Positions 1-10,880 of a stretch of 64,000 bases of DNA are shown here, one piece after another (position 1 is the first letter of the stretch; every line of letters starts with the position of its first letter). A program made the position numbers and the translations under genes. Source of the DNA: an uncultured bacterium (GTDB taxonomy: Bacteria; Acidobacteriota; Thermoanaerobaculia; Thermoanaerobaculales; Thermoanaerobaculaceae); assembly GCA_937924755.1 (NCBI GenBank), contig CALEVZ010000013.1, positions 1 through 64,000 of the forward strand. Reading direction: 5' to 3'. The notes below the pieces were generated by a model that was not told where the DNA came from, did no database searches, and saw nothing but the letters and a program-made list of their open reading frames with translations.

Positions 1-649
1 CGGGCTCGAAGAGAGCCAGCTCCTCGGCGGCGCGGCGCACCACCCCCTTGACGGAGCTCCCGGGCAGGTACGGCAGCCCGTACGGGTCGAGAAAGGCGAA
101 ACCGTTCTCGAGAGGGTGCTCGATGCCGAGGCCGGTGGTGAACGGCGCCGTGCACGTCACACTAATGCACAGCCCGCTCACCGTTTGCGCTGCGGAGCGC
201 TGACGGCTCACCGTCGATTGCAGCATTGTCACAACTTTTCCATGCAGAGTGGTGAGGCTCTCCAGCGACTCGCGCTTGGCGCCGGCGGGAATCGTCCAAT
301 CGTGGGCCCAGCCTCGAAAGTACTGGCGGAACGCATGGCCCGGCGGGGCCTGCTGAAAATGGTGAAGAGGGAGGCGCTGAAGATAGCCCGGCGCGGCGAG
401 CTGGAGGTGGTTGCCGCCGCCGTGCGGCCCCGCGCCCCCATGCCCGCCAGGGGGATGCCCTGCGGGGCTGCCGTGCCCGCCCCCCGTAGGTGGCGGCGAG
501 TGATGCCGCCCGCCAGGGCCGCCGCCACCGGGGTTGCCTGCGCCACCCCCCGCTCCCCGGCGTTGCTCGCCGCCCGGGGGCCGAGGGCCACCGGAGCCGC
601 CGCTGCGAGGGGGCGGATTGCCGCGATTGCGGTGCTGATCGTAGGGCAT
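1..649 (-). CDS. cmr6: Cmr6 (type III-B RAMP), 3' end cut by window edge
   Basis: This is the last visible gene of the Cmr operon and it runs off the left edge, so only the first 216 codons are seen. The ATG at 649 is preceded by a strong AGGAGG at good spacing. From about residue 165 onward the translation contains the Cmr6 signature ENGFAFLDPYGLPYLPGSSV followed by KGVVRRAAEEL, the glycine-rich RAMP region that contacts crRNA. Cmr6 caps the backbone of the crRNA-guided Cmr complex. The first 80 or so residues are odd: a low-complexity Gly/Pro/His/Arg stretch that is not part of the RAMP fold and is not typical of the family. The family call rests on the C-terminal half and on the position directly after cmr5. 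Confidence 0.88.
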   Translation of the reverse strand, partial: MPYDQHRNRGNPPPRSGGSGGPRPPGGEQRRGAGGGAGNPGGGGPGGRHHSPPPTGGGHGSPAGHPPGGHGGAGPHGGGNHLQLAAPGYLQRLPLHHFQQAPPGHAFRQYFRGWAHDWTIPAGAKRESLESLTTLHGKVVTMLQSTVSRQRSAAQTVSGLCISVTCTAPFTTGLGIEHPLENGFAFLDPYGLPYLPGSSVKGVVRRAAEELALFEP

Positions 650-659
650 GGCGAACCTC

Positions 660-1022
660 CTACCCGCGCGCGGCGGCGAACTGCCGGATCCACTTCAGGA
701 TGGCCAGGGCTTCCTGGGTGGCGTGGAGGTACTGGTCGGACGTGATGGCGTTCCCCGCGAGTTGCCCCATCGCTGCCTCGAACTGGTCCGAGGTGAGGAA
801 CGGACAGGCCGCTTCCGGCTTTTTTAACCAGCCGAGGATATCCAGAAGAAGCCTGTTGTGATGCTCCTTGCCCTTGGACTTGAAAAACGCCAACGTCTGC
901 ATGAGGCCGTTACCCATGATGAGAGCAGGGGCGGCCTTGGCCAGGTTCACGTAGTCTGCGGAAACCTGCTGTACGCGTCCCCACGCGTACGCGGCACGCT
1001 TCTGATCAAGACTTTGCGGCAT
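660..1022 (-). CDS. cmr5: Cmr5, small subunit of the type III-B effector
   Basis: A 120-residue, mostly helical protein with the Cmr5 profile: an N-terminal SLDQKRAAYAWGRV helix, then ADYVNLAKAAPALIMGNGLMQTL and a closing ALAILKWIRQFA helix. Cmr5 subunits stack as the belly filament of the Cmr complex next to the Cmr4 backbone and help hold target RNA. I chose the ATG at 1022 over an upstream in-frame codon at 1043 because GAGGAGG lies just before it and the upstream choice would overlap cmr4. It lies 10 nt after the cmr4 stop and 10 nt before cmr6, so the three are certainly one transcript. Confidence 0.93.
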   Translation of the reverse strand: MPQSLDQKRAAYAWGRVQQVSADYVNLAKAAPALIMGNGLMQTLAFFKSKGKEHHNRLLLDILGWLKKPEAACPFLTSDQFEAAMGQLAGNAITSDQYLHATQEALAILKWIRQFAAARG

Positions 1023-1032
1023 GGCACCCTCC

Positions 1033-1995
1033 TCAACCGGCAAAGCTCACGGCCACCAGGCCGCGGCCGGCGGTGGCGTCGCCGCCGAGCTGCACGACCT
1101 TCGCTGCAAGCTTGCTTTCCAGCTCGTTCATGATTTTTTCTGCCTTCATTGCGTTGTTTGCGGTCTCCCCGCGCTTGACCCGCTGCTGCGAGGCCATTAC
1201 CACCGACACGAAGAGCGCTTCCGGCGGGGCGTTTTCGGTGTAGAAGAGGCCACCGTCGTCGGCGGTGCCGGACTCGTCGTTGATGCGCACGTGAGGCTCC
1301 ACGGTGGTGGCGTTTTGGACGAAGTAGTCGAAGCGCGTGTCGCTCAGAAGCAGGAGATGCTTCTTCAGCTTGTCGCGGAAAAAGTCGTAGCTCGCGTCGC
1401 TCGGGATGGCCTTCTCGGCCAGCCAGTCGGCCACTTTGCCAAGCTGTTCGCGGCCTTGCTTGTCGATCGCCGCCGTGAATTGAAACGCTTCGAGGATCAC
1501 AACGTCCGTATCTGCGCCGTTAATTTTTGCCTTCACGGTGAGCCCGGAGTTGTCCTGCACCAGGCACAGGTCGTCGTTGCCAACTCTCGGCACCGACCAC
1601 GGCGTTTCCTCACCCACGAGCTCCGCCGCCCGCTTGAGTCGCGCCAGCGCCGTGGGACAGGTGGCGTACACGAACGACTCCCGCAGGGAGCGCACCGGGA
1701 AGAGCACCACCTGGGCGTCGGTGAAGGCCACCGCCCCCGCATGCTCGGCGTTCCCCGCCTCGGGCCCGAAGATTGCGAGAGTCAGGGCCTTACCGTTCTC
1801 AGGTCCGGCCTCGCCTTTTGCGGCTGCCTCGAACTCGTCCCGCAACGCCCCCTTGATCCCCGAACCGGCGAAGACGGGGTGACCGGTGTGGCGCTCGCGC
1901 TGGATGGGGTTGTCGACGACCCCCAGCGCCTGGCCGGCGCCCATGTGCACCGGGCTGACGCAGTACAGGAACATCAAACGCTTTTCCTCGAACAT
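1033..1995 (-). CDS. cmr4: Cmr4, backbone RAMP and target-RNA nuclease
   Basis: A 320-residue RAMP protein. The N-terminus (MFLYCVSPVHMGAGQALGVV followed by DNPIQRE and then GSGIKGALRDEF) is diagnostic. The Asp at residue 28, in VVDNPIQRE, matches the catalytic aspartate that in known Cmr4 proteins cuts target RNA every six nucleotides. GSGIKGALR is the first glycine-rich RAMP loop. Several copies of Cmr4 form the helical backbone along the crRNA. The ATG at 1995 follows GAGGAGGGACCC, and 32 additional upstream codons in frame are rejected because they lie in the cmr3 3' end and lack a ribosome site. The catalytic residue is intact, so RNA cleavage is expected. Confidence 0.95.
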   Translation of the reverse strand: MFEEKRLMFLYCVSPVHMGAGQALGVVDNPIQRERHTGHPVFAGSGIKGALRDEFEAAAKGEAGPENGKALTLAIFGPEAGNAEHAGAVAFTDAQVVLFPVRSLRESFVYATCPTALARLKRAAELVGEETPWSVPRVGNDDLCLVQDNSGLTVKAKINGADTDVVILEAFQFTAAIDKQGREQLGKVADWLAEKAIPSDASYDFFRDKLKKHLLLLSDTRFDYFVQNATTVEPHVRINDESGTADDGGLFYTENAPPEALFVSVVMASQQRVKRGETANNAMKAEKIMNELESKLAAKVVQLGGDATAGRGLVAVSFAG

Positions 1996-2005
1996 GGGTC
2001 CCTCC

Positions 2006-3229
2006 TCAGCTTTCCTTCGTTTCTCCGGTGGGCCACGGCACCACCAGAACGTTGTTGAACCCCTCGGCCTTGCGTTGCTTCCACACGACATCCCAGCGAT
2101 CCTTTCCGCCCCGCTGGGTCAATTCGTCGCACACGAGATCCCAAAGATGATCGACGTACTGGTGCACGTCCCCCACCACCTCGTCCAGGTAGTAGACGCT
2201 TCCCGCCGGCACCGCCCGTTGCGCCGGCTTCGGCCGGTGCGCCGGCAGGTCCCAACCGGACACCACCTGCGCCCGCGGCACCACGGCGCAGCGCAGACGG
2301 GCGGAAAAGCCTTCGCAGCGAAGGCGATACTCGTTCCCCTCCCGCGCGGCGCCGGGGGGCAGCCATCCCTGCGGGAACAGCCCCGGGGTCAGCAGAAAAA
2401 GGGCGACCTTTTCGTCGGGCGGCACCGGGCGCAGATCGATGGGCGCTTGTGGGAGCGGTTGGACTCTGGCGCCGCGGCCGTCGCCGCCGAGACGGACGAG
2501 ATCGACGCCGTGCAGGAGCTCCGCAGGGCACCCCTCCACCTGGACGAGGAAACCGGTGTGCGGCTTCATGGCCACGGTCCGGGTGGTGTAGATTCTGCCC
2601 TCCTCCGCGGTGTAGCTTTCGCGGCTGCGGGCGATCCCCAGGCGGAAGTCGGGCTTCCAGAGGTCACCAGAGGGCACGAGCTGATCGGCCTGCGGCACGC
2701 CGCCCTGACGGTACGCCTCCCACCCGGCGGCCGAGAGCCACCACCCGCCTTCGGCTTTCCCGGCCTGCGGGCTGACCAGGACCGGCACATCGGTGGTCGG
2801 CCCGCCGTGGCGGATCGGCGAGAGCGCAGCTGGCCAGGCGGTGGGACGCAGCCGCCGCACGATCCACCGGTCGTCGGCGTCGGCCTCCCGCTTTCTTTCC
2901 ACCACCAGGTCGGCGGGGAGGGGCAGCACCGGTTCGAGCTCGTCTTTTGCGGCGCGCGCCAGCGTGACCCCGGCCAGGCGAAAGCTGCCCGGGTTTTCGG
3001 GTGTGCCGAGGACATCGCGGTATTCCGTGCGGCTGTGCTCCGCCGCCTCGTCGGTGAAGCGCCCGAGATCCACGCCGGCGCGCACCAAAAGGGCCGAGCG
3101 CAGGGCCCCGGAAAACACCGAGGGCCACGGCGGCATGAGCGCCTCGGCATGGTCGCCGGGGCCGCCGAAGAGGTTGTTGCCGCGCAGGTAGAGTACATCC
3201 AAGGGTTCGAGGTACAGCCAGACGCTCAT
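2006..3229 (-). CDS. cmr3: Cmr3, RAMP subunit binding the crRNA 5' handle
   Basis: A 407-residue protein starting VWLYLEPLDVLYLRGNNLFG, with PPWPSVFSGALRSALL, typical of Cmr3 (TIGR01888-type). Cmr3 sits beside Cmr2 and helps hold the 8-nt repeat-derived 5' handle of crRNA. The ATG overlaps the cmr2 stop by four bases (ATGA), so translation is coupled. It ends 10 nt before the cmr4 start. Glycine-rich segments at the C-terminus (GSVYYLDEVVGDV) are consistent with a RAMP fold. Nothing in the reading frame looks damaged. Confidence 0.92.
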   Translation of the reverse strand: MSVWLYLEPLDVLYLRGNNLFGGPGDHAEALMPPWPSVFSGALRSALLVRAGVDLGRFTDEAAEHSRTEYRDVLGTPENPGSFRLAGVTLARAAKDELEPVLPLPADLVVERKREADADDRWIVRRLRPTAWPAALSPIRHGGPTTDVPVLVSPQAGKAEGGWWLSAAGWEAYRQGGVPQADQLVPSGDLWKPDFRLGIARSRESYTAEEGRIYTTRTVAMKPHTGFLVQVEGCPAELLHGVDLVRLGGDGRGARVQPLPQAPIDLRPVPPDEKVALFLLTPGLFPQGWLPPGAAREGNEYRLRCEGFSARLRCAVVPRAQVVSGWDLPAHRPKPAQRAVPAGSVYYLDEVVGDVHQYVDHLWDLVCDELTQRGGKDRWDVVWKQRKAEGFNNVLVVPWPTGETKES

Positions 3230-6200
3230 GCCTTACCCCCTTTCCCGTCGTCGGATGCCGCGGGCGGCAACGGCGCCCGCCCCTCCCGCGCCAGAAACTC
3301 CGCCACGATGAGCAGGTTGGCGAGATGCTCCGGAACCGAGAGCCACGTCCGCCGCTCACCCCAGGGCCGGCACTGGCGCAGCGCCACCTCCACGATGTCG
3401 ACCGCCAAGGACGTCGCCGGAGGGGCGGAGTCCTTGAGCCAGGCGCCGTAGCCGTTGTCTTCGAATTTCTTGCCGTCGACTCCCTGGCGCTGGAGCTGCC
3501 ACGCCAGAGTCCGAGTCAGCATCTCCTTGTAGTCGGGTTTTTTCATCGGCGCGCCCGGTGAGTCGGGATGGGACGGCAGGTCGGCCAGCCACTCCAGGGT
3601 GTGGTAGACCGCCCGGCGCGAGACGAACGGCAGCGCCAGGGTGTCGCGCAGGCGCAGCAGCACCCCGATGGGGGTGACGAGGCGCGCGGTGAGCACTTTC
3701 GACCACTGGTCCGGGATGTATGGCACATCCCGGGGGTCGGCCGTGTCGTGCTCCTTGGATTTCACCCCGCCGAATCCCCAGGAGGCGGTGTAGGTCGTCT
3801 CGCCGCCCCCGCGCTTTGACAGCACGATGGAGAAGCTGTTGCGGCCATTGTTCTTGGCTGTCTTCTCGGCCTCCCGCAGGCGGCGCAGCACGGCCTGCAG
3901 CGGCGCCTCGTGGTGGGCCACCACCGCGCCCATGGAAGCGGTCATGCGGCCCCCCATGGCCCGCAGCAGGCGGCCTCGCACCCGCACGAAGCCACGGTCG
4001 ATGTCGCCGAGCCTCGCCCCGAGCTGGCGGTACAGTTGCCACACGCTGTCCTTTTCGCCGCTCGGCACGATCCCGGAGAAGGCGCAGCGCAGGGCGAACA
4101 TGCAGGGGAGGAGGTCATCCACCGCCACCATGGCGAGGGCGTCGTCGCCGCCGGAGTAAATCAGGCGCCCGAGAAACAGCTCCTCCACCACCCAGCGCGC
4201 CACCTCGAGGGCGAAGCCGCTCATGGCCCCGGACAGCGCCGCGTGGAAGCTGGGGCTCGGCGGACGGGGGGCCCGGAGCAGAAGTTGGACGGCCGTGTCG
4301 GGGCCCGTTTGCTTCCCGGCCAGCCACCCGGCCAGCTGCGAGTGCCAGAGCTCCTCGAGCCGCAACATGAGCTTGGGATCCCCCGACAGCCACCTGCCGG
4401 CCTGGTCGCCGTCCATGAGGATCATGCCGTAGTACCGTTCGGGGCGGCTGCCGAACGCCGTCTTCCACAGCTGCTCCAGGCGCTCCGCCTGGGGGGCCGC
4501 AGCCTTCTTTCCCTGAGGGTCCGGGGTTTCCGTGGTTTCCGCCGACCCGGCGCGGTCAAAAAGCTCCGGGAGCACGCGGCACACGGTTCTGACGTCGGCG
4601 GTTTCGCCTTCGAGGCGGTCGGCGAGCTTTTTGGGAAGCACCGTCCACGGCGTGCTCTGGCTTTCCTTGGCGGTGTCGGCCGCGATCTTGGCGAGTTGGT
4701 TGAAGGCATCGAGACGTTTCTTGAAATCTTTTTCCTTCTCGCTTGGCTTCGGCTTCAGGGGCAGGCGGTCGAGGTCGGCGGCGAGGGCCATGGTGTGGGT
4801 GGAGACCACGAAGCGGGCGAGCCGCTCCGGGGCAGGTGCGGCGCCTTTCTCCGGGGCTGCAGCTTCAGAACCTTCACGCCGGAAGTGGGCCACCCAGTCG
4901 CCGGCCATGGCTGCAAAACGCCGCGGCCACAATCGCTTGGTGGCACACAGGGCGCACAGGCGCTCGCCGCCCTTGGCCACCGCGTGATCGCGCTCGGCCA
5001 GCCGGGTCCACAGGGTTTCCACGCCTTTCCCGGCCGGCAGCTCGAACTTCCTGCGCGGCCTTTTCTTTTTTGATTCGTCTTCGGAGGGCTGGTCGTCGCC
5101 GGGCCCGCGCAGCCACTCCCGCTCGCCGCAGATGCTGCACCGGTAGCCCTCCTGACGGATCTGTTCAAACCCCCGCGCGGCCTTGCTGGCGGCGTGCACC
5201 CGTTCCGCGAGCTCCAGCACGGCCGGGTACAGCGTGCCGGGGTTGGGCTCGTAGCGCAGCAACGCGGCCGCCGCCTCGGACCCGCCGGCACCGCCCGCTT
5301 GGGGCAACGAGGTGAGCGCCTGCCAGAATTCGGACCCCAGGAAGCCGGGCGCGGCATCGGTGCCGAAGAAGACGCCCAGCGCCTCGGCCAGTTGCGAGGT
5401 ATCGAGCGACGGTTCCCCCCAGGCGGGCCGCGCGGCCGCACCGGCTTCGGTTTTGCCTTGGGACTTTAGCATGAAGGTCTTGAAGGGTACGGCCGACCAG
5501 TAGACCTCGGGGAAGCCGGCCAGCTGGTCGTGGAGCTGGCGTTTCGCATCGTCCGTGAGGTCGCCCGCCTCGGCGAGCCGATACAGCTCGCTGGCGGTTT
5601 CTCGAGCCTGCGCCGCGGCCCACGCCCGCACCTTTTCGACGATTTCTTCGGCCAGCCCGGCCGCGGCGCCCGCAGGCACGATGGCCACGAAACGGTTGGG
5701 CAGGCACGGCGAGAAGAGGGGGTTGGAGTCGGTGGGCGAGTGCTTCCAGTCGGGCGTGGCGGGGATCTCTCTGTCGCCGGGCAGCTTGAGCCCCTGCTCC
5801 TCGAGCCACACGTCCACCAGGGGAACGCCCACCAGCGACGGAAAGACCACGGCGTCGGGGCCGAAGCGCTCGGCCACCGGCTTCATGGCCTCCCAGGCCA
5901 GGCAGGAGAGCAGGTGGGAGCCGGCCCAGAGATCCGAGGTGGTGCGCGCCTGCTCGATGAAGCCCTGCACCGGCCCCAGGGAGACGAGCAGCAGGGCAGG
6001 ATTTTCGTCCGGATCGGCCGCCAGCGCCCCGGCGAACGCCGAGGCCAGGGCGTTGTGCTCCCAGATGGAGTGGTCGGGCACCCGGGAGTCGGCGGGCAGA
6101 AGACGCCAAACCGCACCCAGGTCCAGCTCCTTGGGTGGGCTCGCCGGTCCGAGGCGCCACAGCGCCAACACGGCGCGCCGCAGTGCTGCCACCGTCGCCA

Positions 6201-6729
6201 CCTCCTCCTTGCCCAGTTCCTCGGGCAGGCACGCCGCGGCCAGCACGCCCTCGTCGAGCACGGCATCCTGCACCGCCTTCTCTGGAACCTCGGTGGCGTC
6301 GTCGAAGGTCACGTCCTCTGTCGCGGTAGCGAGCAGATCTTGAATCCCCCTGGACGAGCCGGTAACGATGCGCCCCGATGTCGTGACGTACAGGTCACCC
6401 AGCTGGTAGTGGTCGCCGCCGAGCGGGTGCACGAGCTCGGCGCCATGGCGCGACCAGAGGAAGATGCGCCGGTCGGTGGTCCTGTCCTCTTTCGGAATGG
6501 GCCACTGGGGCCGGTCGCTGGCGGCCGCCCACCAGTCGGCAAGGCGGGCAATCCTTTGTAACTCTCGTTCCAAATCTTCGGAACCGAAGCAGTACTCTCG
6601 CAGCACCGCCGCCGTGCCGCTCTCGTGGCCTCCGCGAGTGCGGCCGAGGATCAAGGCCTTCTCCGGCGGGTCGTGCAGCCAGGCGGCGAGCTTGGCTTGC
6701 CAGAGGGAGAGAAGTTGCGAGTCGGTCAT
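3226..6729 (-). CDS. cmr2: Cmr2/Cas10, large subunit with cyclase palm
   Basis: The 1167-residue Cas10 protein of the III-B complex. The N-terminus has the HD-type motif WLHDPPEKAL and the ADWWAAASDRPQ segment typical of Cmr2. A zinc-binding treble clef is visible as CSIC at 531-534 and CALC at 592-595. The palm domain has an intact GGDD at 860-863 (IYSGGDDALAMV), the site that makes cyclic oligoadenylates when target RNA is bound, so signalling should be active. That fits the CARF gene encoded divergently 271 nt away. I start at the ATG 6729, where GGAGG sits six bases upstream; a GTG at 6735 overlaps that site. It is first in the cmr2-3-4-5-6 operon and overlaps cmr3 by four bases. Confidence 0.95.
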   Translation of the reverse strand: MTDSQLLSLWQAKLAAWLHDPPEKALILGRTRGGHESGTAAVLREYCFGSEDLERELQRIARLADWWAAASDRPQWPIPKEDRTTDRRIFLWSRHGAELVHPLGGDHYQLGDLYVTTSGRIVTGSSRGIQDLLATATEDVTFDDATEVPEKAVQDAVLDEGVLAAACLPEELGKEEVATVAALRRAVLALWRLGPASPPKELDLGAVWRLLPADSRVPDHSIWEHNALASAFAGALAADPDENPALLLVSLGPVQGFIEQARTTSDLWAGSHLLSCLAWEAMKPVAERFGPDAVVFPSLVGVPLVDVWLEEQGLKLPGDREIPATPDWKHSPTDSNPLFSPCLPNRFVAIVPAGAAAGLAEEIVEKVRAWAAAQARETASELYRLAEAGDLTDDAKRQLHDQLAGFPEVYWSAVPFKTFMLKSQGKTEAGAAARPAWGEPSLDTSQLAEALGVFFGTDAAPGFLGSEFWQALTSLPQAGGAGGSEAAAALLRYEPNPGTLYPAVLELAERVHAASKAARGFEQIRQEGYRCSICGEREWLRGPGDDQPSEDESKKKRPRRKFELPAGKGVETLWTRLAERDHAVAKGGERLCALCATKRLWPRRFAAMAGDWVAHFRREGSEAAAPEKGAAPAPERLARFVVSTHTMALAADLDRLPLKPKPSEKEKDFKKRLDAFNQLAKIAADTAKESQSTPWTVLPKKLADRLEGETADVRTVCRVLPELFDRAGSAETTETPDPQGKKAAAPQAERLEQLWKTAFGSRPERYYGMILMDGDQAGRWLSGDPKLMLRLEELWHSQLAGWLAGKQTGPDTAVQLLLRAPRPPSPSFHAALSGAMSGFALEVARWVVEELFLGRLIYSGGDDALAMVAVDDLLPCMFALRCAFSGIVPSGEKDSVWQLYRQLGARLGDIDRGFVRVRGRLLRAMGGRMTASMGAVVAHHEAPLQAVLRRLREAEKTAKNNGRNSFSIVLSKRGGGETTYTASWGFGGVKSKEHDTADPRDVPYIPDQWSKVLTARLVTPIGVLLRLRDTLALPFVSRRAVYHTLEWLADLPSHPDSPGAPMKKPDYKEMLTRTLAWQLQRQGVDGKKFEDNGYGAWLKDSAPPATSLAVDIVEVALRQCRPWGERRTWLSVPEHLANLLIVAEFLAREGRAPLPPAASDDGKGGKA

Positions 6730-7000
6730 GGGCACCTCCAGATGGGATGGCCGGTGAGTGGAAAGGGGCCAACGGGCAACCTTCCTCCCGGGCCGGCGCG
6801 TCTTGCAGGGTGTTGGTCAGGCGACATCTGTCACCTCCACGTTGTCGTCACGTCTCCGAAGCGGGGCGGATGGGCGTGGGCCTGAGAGGTACTCGTGGCC
6901 AGATTGCACTGACGGCAATCTGCGGAACTTGTGATTATGATGGGCGGCGACCGGGGCGTTTGTCAAGACTATGCGATCCCCGCCGTCGGAGAGGAGGCGC
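6730..7000. promoter_or_regulatory. Divergent intergenic region between cmr2 and the CARF gene
   Basis: This 271-nt stretch must hold the promoters of the cmr operon (leftward) and the CARF gene (rightward). On the minus strand there is a perfect TTGACA at 6966-6961 with CATCAT 18 nt further (6942-6937), or CATAAT with a 21-nt gap; either would give cmr2 a leader of about 200 nt. On the plus strand TATGAT occurs at 6936-6941 but without a good -35 box. GAGAGGAGG just before 7001 is the ribosome site of the CARF gene. No CRISPR repeat, leader-like A/T tract or palindrome is obvious. Confidence 0.4.
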
Positions 7001-7867
7001 ATGATCACCACCGCCGCAGTCACCGTGGGAACCAGCCTGTACAGCACCCTTGCGGCCCTCCGCCAGGCCCCCTCGGGGGAGGCATGGCTGGCTGCGCTGC
7101 CCGACCTGCAGGCTCGCCAGCGTCTCGGCGACGCCTCGGAAACCCTAGAGCAGCTGCGCCGGGCGGCGGATCGGGGGGCCTGGGAGCGGGTGGGGGAGCT
7201 GCTGGCCCTCTTGCCGCCGGGCCTGCCCCAATGGGGGGCCGAGGCGGCTACCCTGCGTGCCCTGCGCCACGAGCCGGAGCTGCGCAACCTGGAACGCATC
7301 GTGCTGCTGGCCTCCGACACCGCCGAGGGGCGCAACGTGGCCCAGGTGCTAAAGAGCGCCATGGGTGGGTGGGAGCGCCTGCCGGTATCCACCCGGGTAA
7401 TTGCCGACCTGGATTATTCCTCTCCCGCTCGCTTCAAGGTGGAGGGGCTGCGCAACCTGGTCTCCGCCCTGGCGCAGGTCACTCGGGAGGTGCGCCCACA
7501 CCAGCCGGTGTTCGTAGTCTCCGGGGGGTTCAAGGCCCAGGTGGCCCTCACCACGGTGGTGGGCCAGGCCTTGGGGGTGTCGGTGGCCTACCGCTTCGAG
7601 CTCTTCCCCGACACTATATGGCTGCCCCCCCTGCCGGTGCGCCTGGACATGGGGGTGGTGGCCCCGTTGGCGGACCTGCTGCGCCACGGCACCGCTACGG
7701 AAGATCAACTGCGGCAGCGCCTGGGCTCCCCCCTCACCGAGGCCAACCCGGCCTGGGCGGCGGTGCGGGCGCTGCTCACCCCTCACTCCGGCACGGCGGG
7801 CGAGCCGCTGTGGCGCCTGTCCCCCCTGGGGCAACTGGTACTGGAGATGCTCCCCGCTCAGGGATAG
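7001..7867 (+). CDS. CARF-domain protein, APE2256/SSO1393-like, with C-terminal winged helix
   Basis: A 288-residue protein of the CRISPR-associated APE2256-type CARF family. The Rossmann-like CARF domain (about 1-205) shows VGTSL with Ser12, LLASDTAEGRN (102-112) and SGGFKAQVALT (174-184) with Lys178. The Ser and the GG-x-K lysine are the cyclic-oligoadenylate contact residues in this family and in related ring nucleases. The remaining 80 residues resemble a winged helix-turn-helix (ADLLRHGTATEDQLRQRL then WRLSPLGQLVLEML). No RxxxxH HEPN motif and no PIN or restriction-type nuclease motif is seen, so it is not a Csm6/Csx1 RNase. It is likely a ring nuclease that degrades the second messenger or a ligand-responsive regulator. 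The start at 7001 follows GAGAGGAGG; an ATG at 6971 has no such site. Confidence 0.8.
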   Translation: MITTAAVTVGTSLYSTLAALRQAPSGEAWLAALPDLQARQRLGDASETLEQLRRAADRGAWERVGELLALLPPGLPQWGAEAATLRALRHEPELRNLERIVLLASDTAEGRNVAQVLKSAMGGWERLPVSTRVIADLDYSSPARFKVEGLRNLVSALAQVTREVRPHQPVFVVSGGFKAQVALTTVVGQALGVSVAYRFELFPDTIWLPPLPVRLDMGVVAPLADLLRHGTATEDQLRQRLGSPLTEANPAWAAVRALLTPHSGTAGEPLWRLSPLGQLVLEMLPAQG

Positions 7868-7953: not shown

Positions 7954-8808
7954 TTATCCGTGCGGCGTTGGGGCGGGGTGCTCCAATCCGAACTCCACCT
8001 GGCCGAAGCCGTGGGTGGTGAGCTTGCCGAGTCCCAGCAGAGAGGCCACCCGCAGGTAGTCGACGGCGACCGCCCACTCTCCCTCGTAGCTAGCCCACCC
8101 CACCAGGCCCCCCAGGGTGAGGGTGGCCCGCTGACGGGCCGAGCGGCGGGTATGGTCCTCCCAGCGAACTTCCGACCGGAAGGCCTCCACCCGCATCTCC
8201 GGCAACCGGTCCGGCGGCGACGGCCATCCCCAGGAGAGGGCGGCCAGCCTCCAGCGCCGGGCGGCGGCTCGCACCAGGGTGGCGAAATCGGGAGCGCCGG
8301 CGGAGGGTGAACCATCGCGAATCAGGCGCAGCGGGGAACGAAAGTACACCAGCAAGGGGTGTTGAAGATTCACCTCCGCGGGACTCCAGCCAAGAGCCGG
8401 CACCTCCACGGTGGGAGTCACTGGAAGAAAGGGTCGACGAGCCGGGGTGAGTCCTCGGGCCAGGGCCGACTCCAGGGCAATGCGAAATCGGGCGCTGTCC
8501 CCTCGAGCTTGCCCGAACAGTCGCAAGGTGACGGCCAGCTCCTCCCCCCGCCAGGCCACCCGCAAGAGCCAGGGGGGTAATCGGTAAAGGGGACCGCGGG
8601 GGGTTTCCCGGATCGGTTGCCAGTACTCGGGAAAGGAACACCCCTTGGCGTGGCTGCACGTCTCGCAGCGGCGCCTGGGAGCAGTGCAGACCAGGGCTCT
8701 AAGAGCCGACCCCAGGGCCCCCCGCACCGTCGAGCCCCACCACCGACCCGGCCAGGAAAAACCAGAGCCGAGGGGTCGAAACCGACCAACCACATCGAGG
8801 GCCTTCAC
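7954..8808 (-). CDS. cas6: Cas6-type pre-crRNA processing endoribonuclease
   Basis: A 284-residue RAMP protein of the Cas6 family that carries an N-terminal Cys cluster. WWGSTVRGALGSALRALVC is followed by Cys41, Cys48, Cys51 and Cys57, a likely zinc site, and the C-terminus ends in the glycine-rich loop GLGKLTTHGFGQVEF (about 258-272) that binds the crRNA repeat. Cas6 cuts the CRISPR transcript into crRNAs, and the Cmr operon has no other candidate. It starts at GTG 8808 with only a weak GGTAGGG upstream and lies 39 nt after a small four-Cys gene, itself overlapping a flavoprotein gene, so it looks like the third gene of that unit rather than part of the cmr operon. It converges on the CARF gene. 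Confidence 0.85.
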   Translation of the reverse strand: MKALDVVGRFRPLGSGFSWPGRWWGSTVRGALGSALRALVCTAPRRRCETCSHAKGCSFPEYWQPIRETPRGPLYRLPPWLLRVAWRGEELAVTLRLFGQARGDSARFRIALESALARGLTPARRPFLPVTPTVEVPALGWSPAEVNLQHPLLVYFRSPLRLIRDGSPSAGAPDFATLVRAAARRWRLAALSWGWPSPPDRLPEMRVEAFRSEVRWEDHTRRSARQRATLTLGGLVGWASYEGEWAVAVDYLRVASLLGLGKLTTHGFGQVEFGLEHPAPTPHG

Positions 8809-10559: not shown

Positions 10560-10880
10560 CCCGGCGCGATCACCGACACTGGCACGGACACAGACACCGG
10601 CACGGAAACGGTCACGGCCACGGTCATTGACACGGAAACGGGCGCCGTCGCGGCCGGGGCAAGGCCTGCCGGCCCTGGGGGCGGGCCGGAGGCCCGCGTA
10701 CCCAGCGACACGGGACGGGCGCCGTTGCGGCCGGGGCAGGGCCTGCCGGCCCTGGGGGCGGGCCGGAGGCCCGCGCACCCAGCGACACGGAAACGGGCGC
10801 CGTCGCGGCCGGGGCAAGGCCTGCCGGCCCTGGGGGCGGGCCGGAGGCCCGCGCACCCAGCGGCAAGGAAACGGGCGCGA
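10560..10880. repeat. Three tandem units of about 78 bp with internal hairpins, plus a CACGGA-like minisatellite
   Basis: Near-identical units begin at 10631, 10709 and 10786, with a partial fourth at 10864 (spacing 78, 77 and 78). Each contains a perfect inverted repeat GCGGGCC-GGA-GGCCCGC (10681-10697, 10758-10774, 10836-10852) and a second small dyad GGCCTGCCGGCC. Upstream, 10570-10650 is a degenerate run of CACGGA/CACCGG-like hexamers. The block fills most of the 449-nt gap between the MacB-like permease stop (10970) and the flavoprotein start (10520). It is intergenic: frames read through it give only repetitive Arg/Pro/Gly peptides. It may be a dispersed palindromic repeat family or act in transcript termination. 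Confidence 0.85.

What the first reader, a model, noticed from the sequence alone, without database searches (positions are those of the whole stretch)
7001..7867. Stand-alone CARF plus winged-helix protein without HEPN, divergent from cmr2 with an intact GGDD
Cmr2 keeps the cyclase residues GGDD, so cyclic oligoadenylate should be made, yet the only visible CARF protein lacks a HEPN or other nuclease motif. It keeps the ligand residues (Ser12 and Lys178). It could be a ring nuclease that switches the signal off, or a second-messenger-responsive regulator acting through its winged helix, perhaps on the 271-nt divergent promoter region. The toxic effector of this system, if any, must be elsewhere.
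Basis: partly seen in the sequence, partly recalled or inferred. Interest (0 to 1): 0.6.

Follow-up and report, generated by a model that had tools for sequence, protein, structure and literature searches.

The report
Stand-alone CRISPR CARF-winged-helix protein, probable off-switch
A bacterial CRISPR immune system of the type that raises an alarm molecule carries, next to its alarm-making gene, a small protein that probably destroys that molecule; it looks like a toxin-type sensor that has lost its business end, and the system's real toxic effectors are on the next piece of the genome.

Summary
Window 7001-7867 (+) encodes an intact 288-aa protein, CARF plus winged helix, with no HEPN or other effector domain. 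It is divergent from a cmr2 that keeps GGDD and convergent with cas6. The missing effectors were found: the window starts at a contig end inside cmr6, and contig C81 of the same genome carries cmr6-cmr1-hicBA-Cad1-Csx1-PrimPol-cas1-cas2-CRISPR. Thermoanaerobaculum aquaticum (relative G302; its Cad1 fragment matches the solved TaqCad1 406/406) has the same locus in one piece, including this gene. There Cad1 and Csx1 have published cA4 activity (PMC12669630). The AlphaFold model (pLDDT 93) matches Cami1 residues 2-263 (Z 21.6) and the CARF-winged-helix ring nucleases Sis0811 and SSO1393 (Z about 17) over its whole length. Ser12 and Lys178 are invariant in all 78 sequences compared. Of 70 intact named-genome relatives, 69 carry a further C-terminal domain (PADLOC CARF7, CARF_DUF2103); this protein and its two Thermoanaerobaculum orthologues lack it, so it was probably lost. 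Most likely a stand-alone cA4 ring nuclease (about 0.6), working like SSO1393/Sis0811 but from a different CARF7 branch. A promoter-binding role finds no support. New member of a known kind.

The parts
7001..7867 (+). CARF7 (Cas_APE2256) - winged-helix stand-alone protein, 288 aa; Ser12 (GTS motif I) and Lys178 (GGFK motif II)
3226..6735 (-). cmr2/cas10, GGDD cyclase motif intact
2006..3229 (-). cmr3
   Evidence: PF09700 E 4e-58
1033..2091 (-). cmr4 (the true start is probably inside this ORF)
   Evidence: TIGR02580 E 6e-65
660..1043 (-). cmr5
   Evidence: PF09701 E 3.5e-26
5..493 (-). N-terminal part of cmr6, cut by the contig end at window base 1
7954..8808 (-). cas6, convergent with the CARF gene, 86 nt after its stop
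   Evidence: PF10040 E 8e-13
6736..7000 (.). divergent intergenic region between cmr2 and the CARF gene; one promoter-like site facing cmr2 (6966-6937, -), no motif shared with the orthologous regions

Best explanation
It is a stand-alone ring nuclease. A dimer of CARF domains binds cyclic tetra-adenylate made by Cas10/Cmr2. Ser12 and Lys178 position the scissile phosphates so that the ribose 2'-OH cuts the ring to linear products, switching off the Cad1 and Csx1 effectors encoded at the other end of the same locus. The winged helix is a structural or auto-inhibitory appendage as in Sis0811, not a DNA reader. The protein descends from a longer CARF7 protein (CARF - winged helix - extra C-terminal domain) by loss of that domain in Thermoanaerobaculaceae. 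Shown here: domain content, predicted fold, motif conservation, locus layout, effectors in the same genome, domain absence. Inferred: cA4 as ligand, catalysis, dimer formation, and the direction of the effect.
For: No effector domain. Whole-length fold match to the ring nucleases Sis0811 (Z 17.3, 243 residues) and SSO1393 (Z 17.1) and to Cami1 residues 2-263 (Z 21.6). Gly10-Thr11-Ser12, Gly176 and Lys178 invariant in 78 of 78 sequences including Sis0811, SSO1393 and Cami1. The deposited S12A and S12G/K169G mutants of Sis0811 hit the same residues. Cami1 has ring nuclease activity (PMC12409355); TaqCad1, with GTS and GGYK motifs, cleaves cA4 and its K106A mutant does not (PMC12669630). The own genome encodes Cad1 (67% identical to the T. 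aquaticum one) and Csx1 in the continuation of the operon. TaqCsx1 is activated by cA4. Orthologues are kept beside cas6 in two Thermoanaerobaculum genomes at 36-40% identity, so the short form is retained over long divergence. No Crn2 (STIV_B116-like) match in the genome.
Against: No activity can be measured here. TaqCad1 is itself a cA4 ring nuclease, so a second one may be redundant. The window protein has a long branch (1.61) and keeps only 38 of 51 strongly conserved CARF positions, against 43-45 in its relatives. It groups with CARF_DUF2103 proteins, not with SSO1393/Sis0811.
Confidence: 0.6

Rival explanations
1. A cA4-responsive transcription regulator of the Csa3 kind: cA4 binding moves the winged helix on or off DNA in the divergent cmr2 region.
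For: CARF plus winged-helix layout and divergent orientation to cmr2; a promoter-like site faces cmr2 inside the region. Csa3 is a CARF-wHTH regulator that binds cA4 (PMC8844856).
Against: The C-terminal domain is not basic (pI 6.1, 4.9 and 5.5 in the three orthologues) and no motif is shared by the upstream regions. The match to Csa3 covers the CARF only (Z 10, to residue 213), while the match to Sis0811 and Cami1 covers the winged helix too. The gene of the nearest long relative (L018/L040) lies between Csx1 and PrimPol, not beside cmr2.
Confidence: 0.13
2. A non-cleaving cA4 sink or decoy that keeps the Cami1-type part binding other partners (Cami1 acts at the ribosome), buffering the signal or carrying it to a partner.
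For: The best fold match is Cami1 residues 2-263, the part before RelE, including a ribosome-bound Cami1 structure (8phj). The query departs from conserved positions near motif II (SGGFK for TGGYK).
Against: Ser12 and Lys178 are kept; Cami1 itself has ring nuclease activity according to PMC12409355; nothing in the sequence shows partner binding.
Confidence: 0.13
3. A decaying effector: a CARF7 protein that lost its C-terminal domain and is on its way out, with no present function.
For: Domain loss against 69 of 70 intact named-genome relatives; long branch and loss of 13 of 51 conserved positions.
Against: The reading frame is intact with a good ribosome-binding site; the short form is kept intact and syntenic in three genomes of two genera; all motif residues are kept; 86 nt between its stop and cas6 leave no room for a remnant of the lost domain.
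Confidence: 0.1

Closest known systems
SSO1393 / Sis0811 (Crn1-type CARF-winged-helix ring nucleases of Sulfolobales)
   Same: CARF plus winged helix only, whole-length fold match, Ser12 and the motif-II lysine, no effector domain
   Different: 15-17% identical over the aligned residues; a separate branch of the tree; bacterial; activity untested
Cami1 (CARF - winged helix - RelE, Allochromatium vinosum, 8phb)
   Same: closest solved relative by profile (E 1e-28) and fold (Z 21.6) over CARF and winged helix
   Different: the RelE nuclease is absent here
CARF7 CARF_DUF2103 proteins (PADLOC PDLC01930)
   Same: nearest profile (E 3e-49); the nearest long relative is from the same order (L040/L018)
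   Different: the C-terminal domain of about 110 aa is missing
Thermoanaerobaculum aquaticum type III-B locus (TaqCad1, TaqCsx1; PMC12669630)
   Same: same gene order, with an orthologue of this protein (40% identity) between cmr2 and cas6
   Different: the published passages read here name Csx1 and Cad1 only; this third CARF protein is untested

Membership tests
CARF7 / Cas_APE2256 (PF09651, TIGR02619) | profile score over the curated cut-off | tested here: met
   PF09651 81.9 bits (cut-off 24.8), TIGR02619 48.6 (37.45); PADLOC best hits are mostly CARF7, CARF_RelE or Csm6 CARF profiles
Stand-alone CARF ring nuclease (Crn1 type, SSO1393/Sis0811) | CARF plus winged-helix fold without effector domain | tested here: met
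Stand-alone CARF ring nuclease (Crn1 type, SSO1393/Sis0811) | motif I Ser and motif II Lys | tested here: met
   S12 and K178 invariant in 78 of 78
Stand-alone CARF ring nuclease (Crn1 type, SSO1393/Sis0811) | common descent with SSO1393/Sis0811 apart from other CARF7 | tested here: not met
   the tree puts it inside the CARF_DUF2103 group; the SSO1393/Sis0811 pair is on the other side of a fully supported branch
Stand-alone CARF ring nuclease (Crn1 type, SSO1393/Sis0811) | binds and cleaves cA4 | not testable with these tools
   needs protein
Cami1 | C-terminal RelE ribonuclease | tested here: not met
   the protein ends after the winged helix; 86 nt to cas6
CARF_DUF2103 | C-terminal domain after the winged helix | tested here: not met
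   match covers 4-244 of 353 profile positions; 0 of 3 conserved C-terminal columns
Csx1/Csm6 | HEPN domain | tested here: not met
   no HEPN match; the fold after the CARF is a winged helix
Csa3 | fold match that includes the C-terminal winged helix | tested here: inconclusive
   2wte match Z 10.0 ends at residue 213
Csa3 | DNA binding by the winged helix | not testable with these tools
   indirect signs are against it: non-basic domain, no shared operator

The most novel reading that the evidence does not exclude
A third cA4 receptor in a circuit whose Cad1 already cleaves cA4: an effector-type CARF protein that lost its C-terminal domain and now acts as a dedicated damper, or as a decoy at the site where Cami1-like proteins act. 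This would show how effectors turn into regulators of their own circuit.
Probability: 0.15. Interest if true: 0.6.

Novelty: new member of a known kind. Interest (0 to 1): 0.42.

Why it matters
The Thermoanaerobaculum aquaticum Cad1/Csx1 system has been studied in vitro. In the passages read, the published account of its locus names Csx1 and Cad1 as ancillary proteins and not this one. If this CARF protein cleaves or soaks up cA4, the strength and duration of the Cad1 and Csx1 response must be re-read with it included. It also shows a ring-nuclease-like layout reached by loss of a C-terminal domain, and a size class (288 aa) that the 250-aa ring-nuclease cut-off in PMC12409355 would leave out.

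Tried and rejected
Viral contigs: no relative. Plasmids: five distant relatives only. Operator search in the divergent region: one 8-nt perfect inverted repeat and no shared motif. Identity of the extra C-terminal domain of long relatives: no Pfam match, no significant PDB match by sequence, a weak hhalign match to RelE-type tails that starts in the shared wing, so undecided; PADLOC calls it DUF2103. Papers with both DUF2103 and CARF: none held. Molina 2021 on Sis0811 is not held; its result on winged-helix auto-inhibition is taken from PMC10018336. Crn3 (Csx3) and Csx16 searches found nothing, but their controls did not ring either, so this is no evidence of absence. The tree drawn is the quick one; the AU test on the careful tree does not reject a single loss (p 0.079).

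Full report
Observation. The protein at 7001-7867 is real: an intact 288-aa frame with AGGAGG just ahead of its ATG. It matches Cas_APE2256 (PF09651, E 5e-23) and TIGR02619 over their cut-offs. The neighbours are cmr5-cmr4-cmr3-cmr2 on the minus strand, cmr2 with GGDD, and cas6 convergent on the other side.

Where the effector is. The window begins at base 1 of contig C13, inside cmr6. Contig C81 of the same genome starts in cmr6 and goes on with cmr1, a HicB/HicA-like pair, Cad1 (CARF-adenosine deaminase), Csx1 (CARF-HEPN), PrimPol, cas1, cas2 and CRISPR repeats. Contig C40 shares 141 bp with the start of C13 and 134 bp with C81, so the three meet in a cmr6 repeat; the join itself is inferred. 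The relative G302 has the whole locus on one contig in the same order: repeats-cas2-cas1-PrimPol-Csx1-Cad1-cmr1-cmr6-cmr5-cmr4-cmr3-cmr2, then the divergent CARF gene and cas6. Its Cad1 fragment matches the solved TaqCad1 letter for letter over 406 residues, so G302 is Thermoanaerobaculum aquaticum or the same species. Published work on that organism shows that TaqCad1 binds cA4 (about 13 nM) and cleaves it, and that TaqCsx1 is activated by cA4 (PMC12669630). The likely messenger of the window's system is therefore cA4.

What the protein is. AlphaFold gives a confident model (pLDDT 93.4, 62 sequences): a CARF fold with a helical insert, then a winged helix. Its best solved matches are Cami1 over residues 2-263 (Z 21.6), and the ring nucleases Sis0811 (Z 17.3) and SSO1393 (Z 17.1) over their whole length; Csa3 matches over the CARF only. 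Gly10-Thr11-Ser12, Gly176 and Lys178 are the same in all 78 sequences compared. Nearest family profiles are PADLOC CARF7 CARF_DUF2103 and CARF_RelE.

Domain loss. Of 70 intact relatives in named genomes, all but one carry a further C-terminal domain of about 110 residues. The exception is Thermoanaerobaculum sp. SKYB76 (L053). The short forms (window, T. aquaticum, L053) and one long form from the same order (L040) make one clade inside the long ones (SH-aLRT 97). A single loss is not rejected (p 0.079). Only 4 of 37 genomes of the order carry the gene at all.

How it most likely works. With no effector domain, intact ring-nuclease motifs, a whole-length match to CARF-winged-helix ring nucleases and two cA4-type effectors in the same locus, the best reading is a cA4 off-switch. 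The winged helix of Sis0811 is reported to be auto-inhibitory (PMC10018336), which fits a role other than DNA reading. A DNA-reading role has no support: the domain is not basic and the upstream regions share nothing. Caution: TaqCad1 already cleaves cA4, and the window copy has diverged more than its relatives (38 of 51 conserved CARF positions kept). A Cad1 from another species did not cleave its ligands (PMC11645235), so the need for a separate ring nuclease can differ between systems. A non-cleaving sink or a decaying gene stays possible. Catalysis and ligand are not shown here.

Verdict. It works like SSO1393/Sis0811 but, by descent, belongs to another CARF7 branch that lost its C-terminal domain. 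New member of a known kind, of moderate interest because it is an untested third CARF protein in a locus that is already being studied in vitro.

Noticed in passing
window 1-141; G000 contigs C40 and C81 (L037, L036:1-344): C13 and C40 begin with the same 141 bp of cmr6, and C40's other end equals C81:344-211: probably a tandem duplication of cmr3/cmr4-cmr6 that broke the assembly.
   Followed up: partly
L036:1827-2335: A HicB/HicA-like toxin-antitoxin pair sits between cmr1 and Cad1 inside the CRISPR operon of the own genome (HicA Pfam E 6e-10; the HicB partner by eye only).
   Followed up: partly
L038 (contig C23):2082-10489: A second type III-B locus in the same genome with its own Cas10 (GGDD) and a CARF1-HEPN effector.
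   Followed up: partly
window 10629-10868: Three GC-rich direct repeats at 77-78 nt spacing beside an ORF that looks like an FAD-dependent oxidase.
   Followed up: no
L036:6906-8810, L018:3373-5325: A TPR-PrimPol fusion (AEP-TOTE primase domain) just before cas1 in these type III-B loci.
   Followed up: no
long relatives such as L040:3905-5119: The widespread CARF7 proteins of 355-410 aa carry a C-terminal helix-four-strand-helix domain without any Pfam match and of unknown activity, in many phyla.
   Followed up: partly
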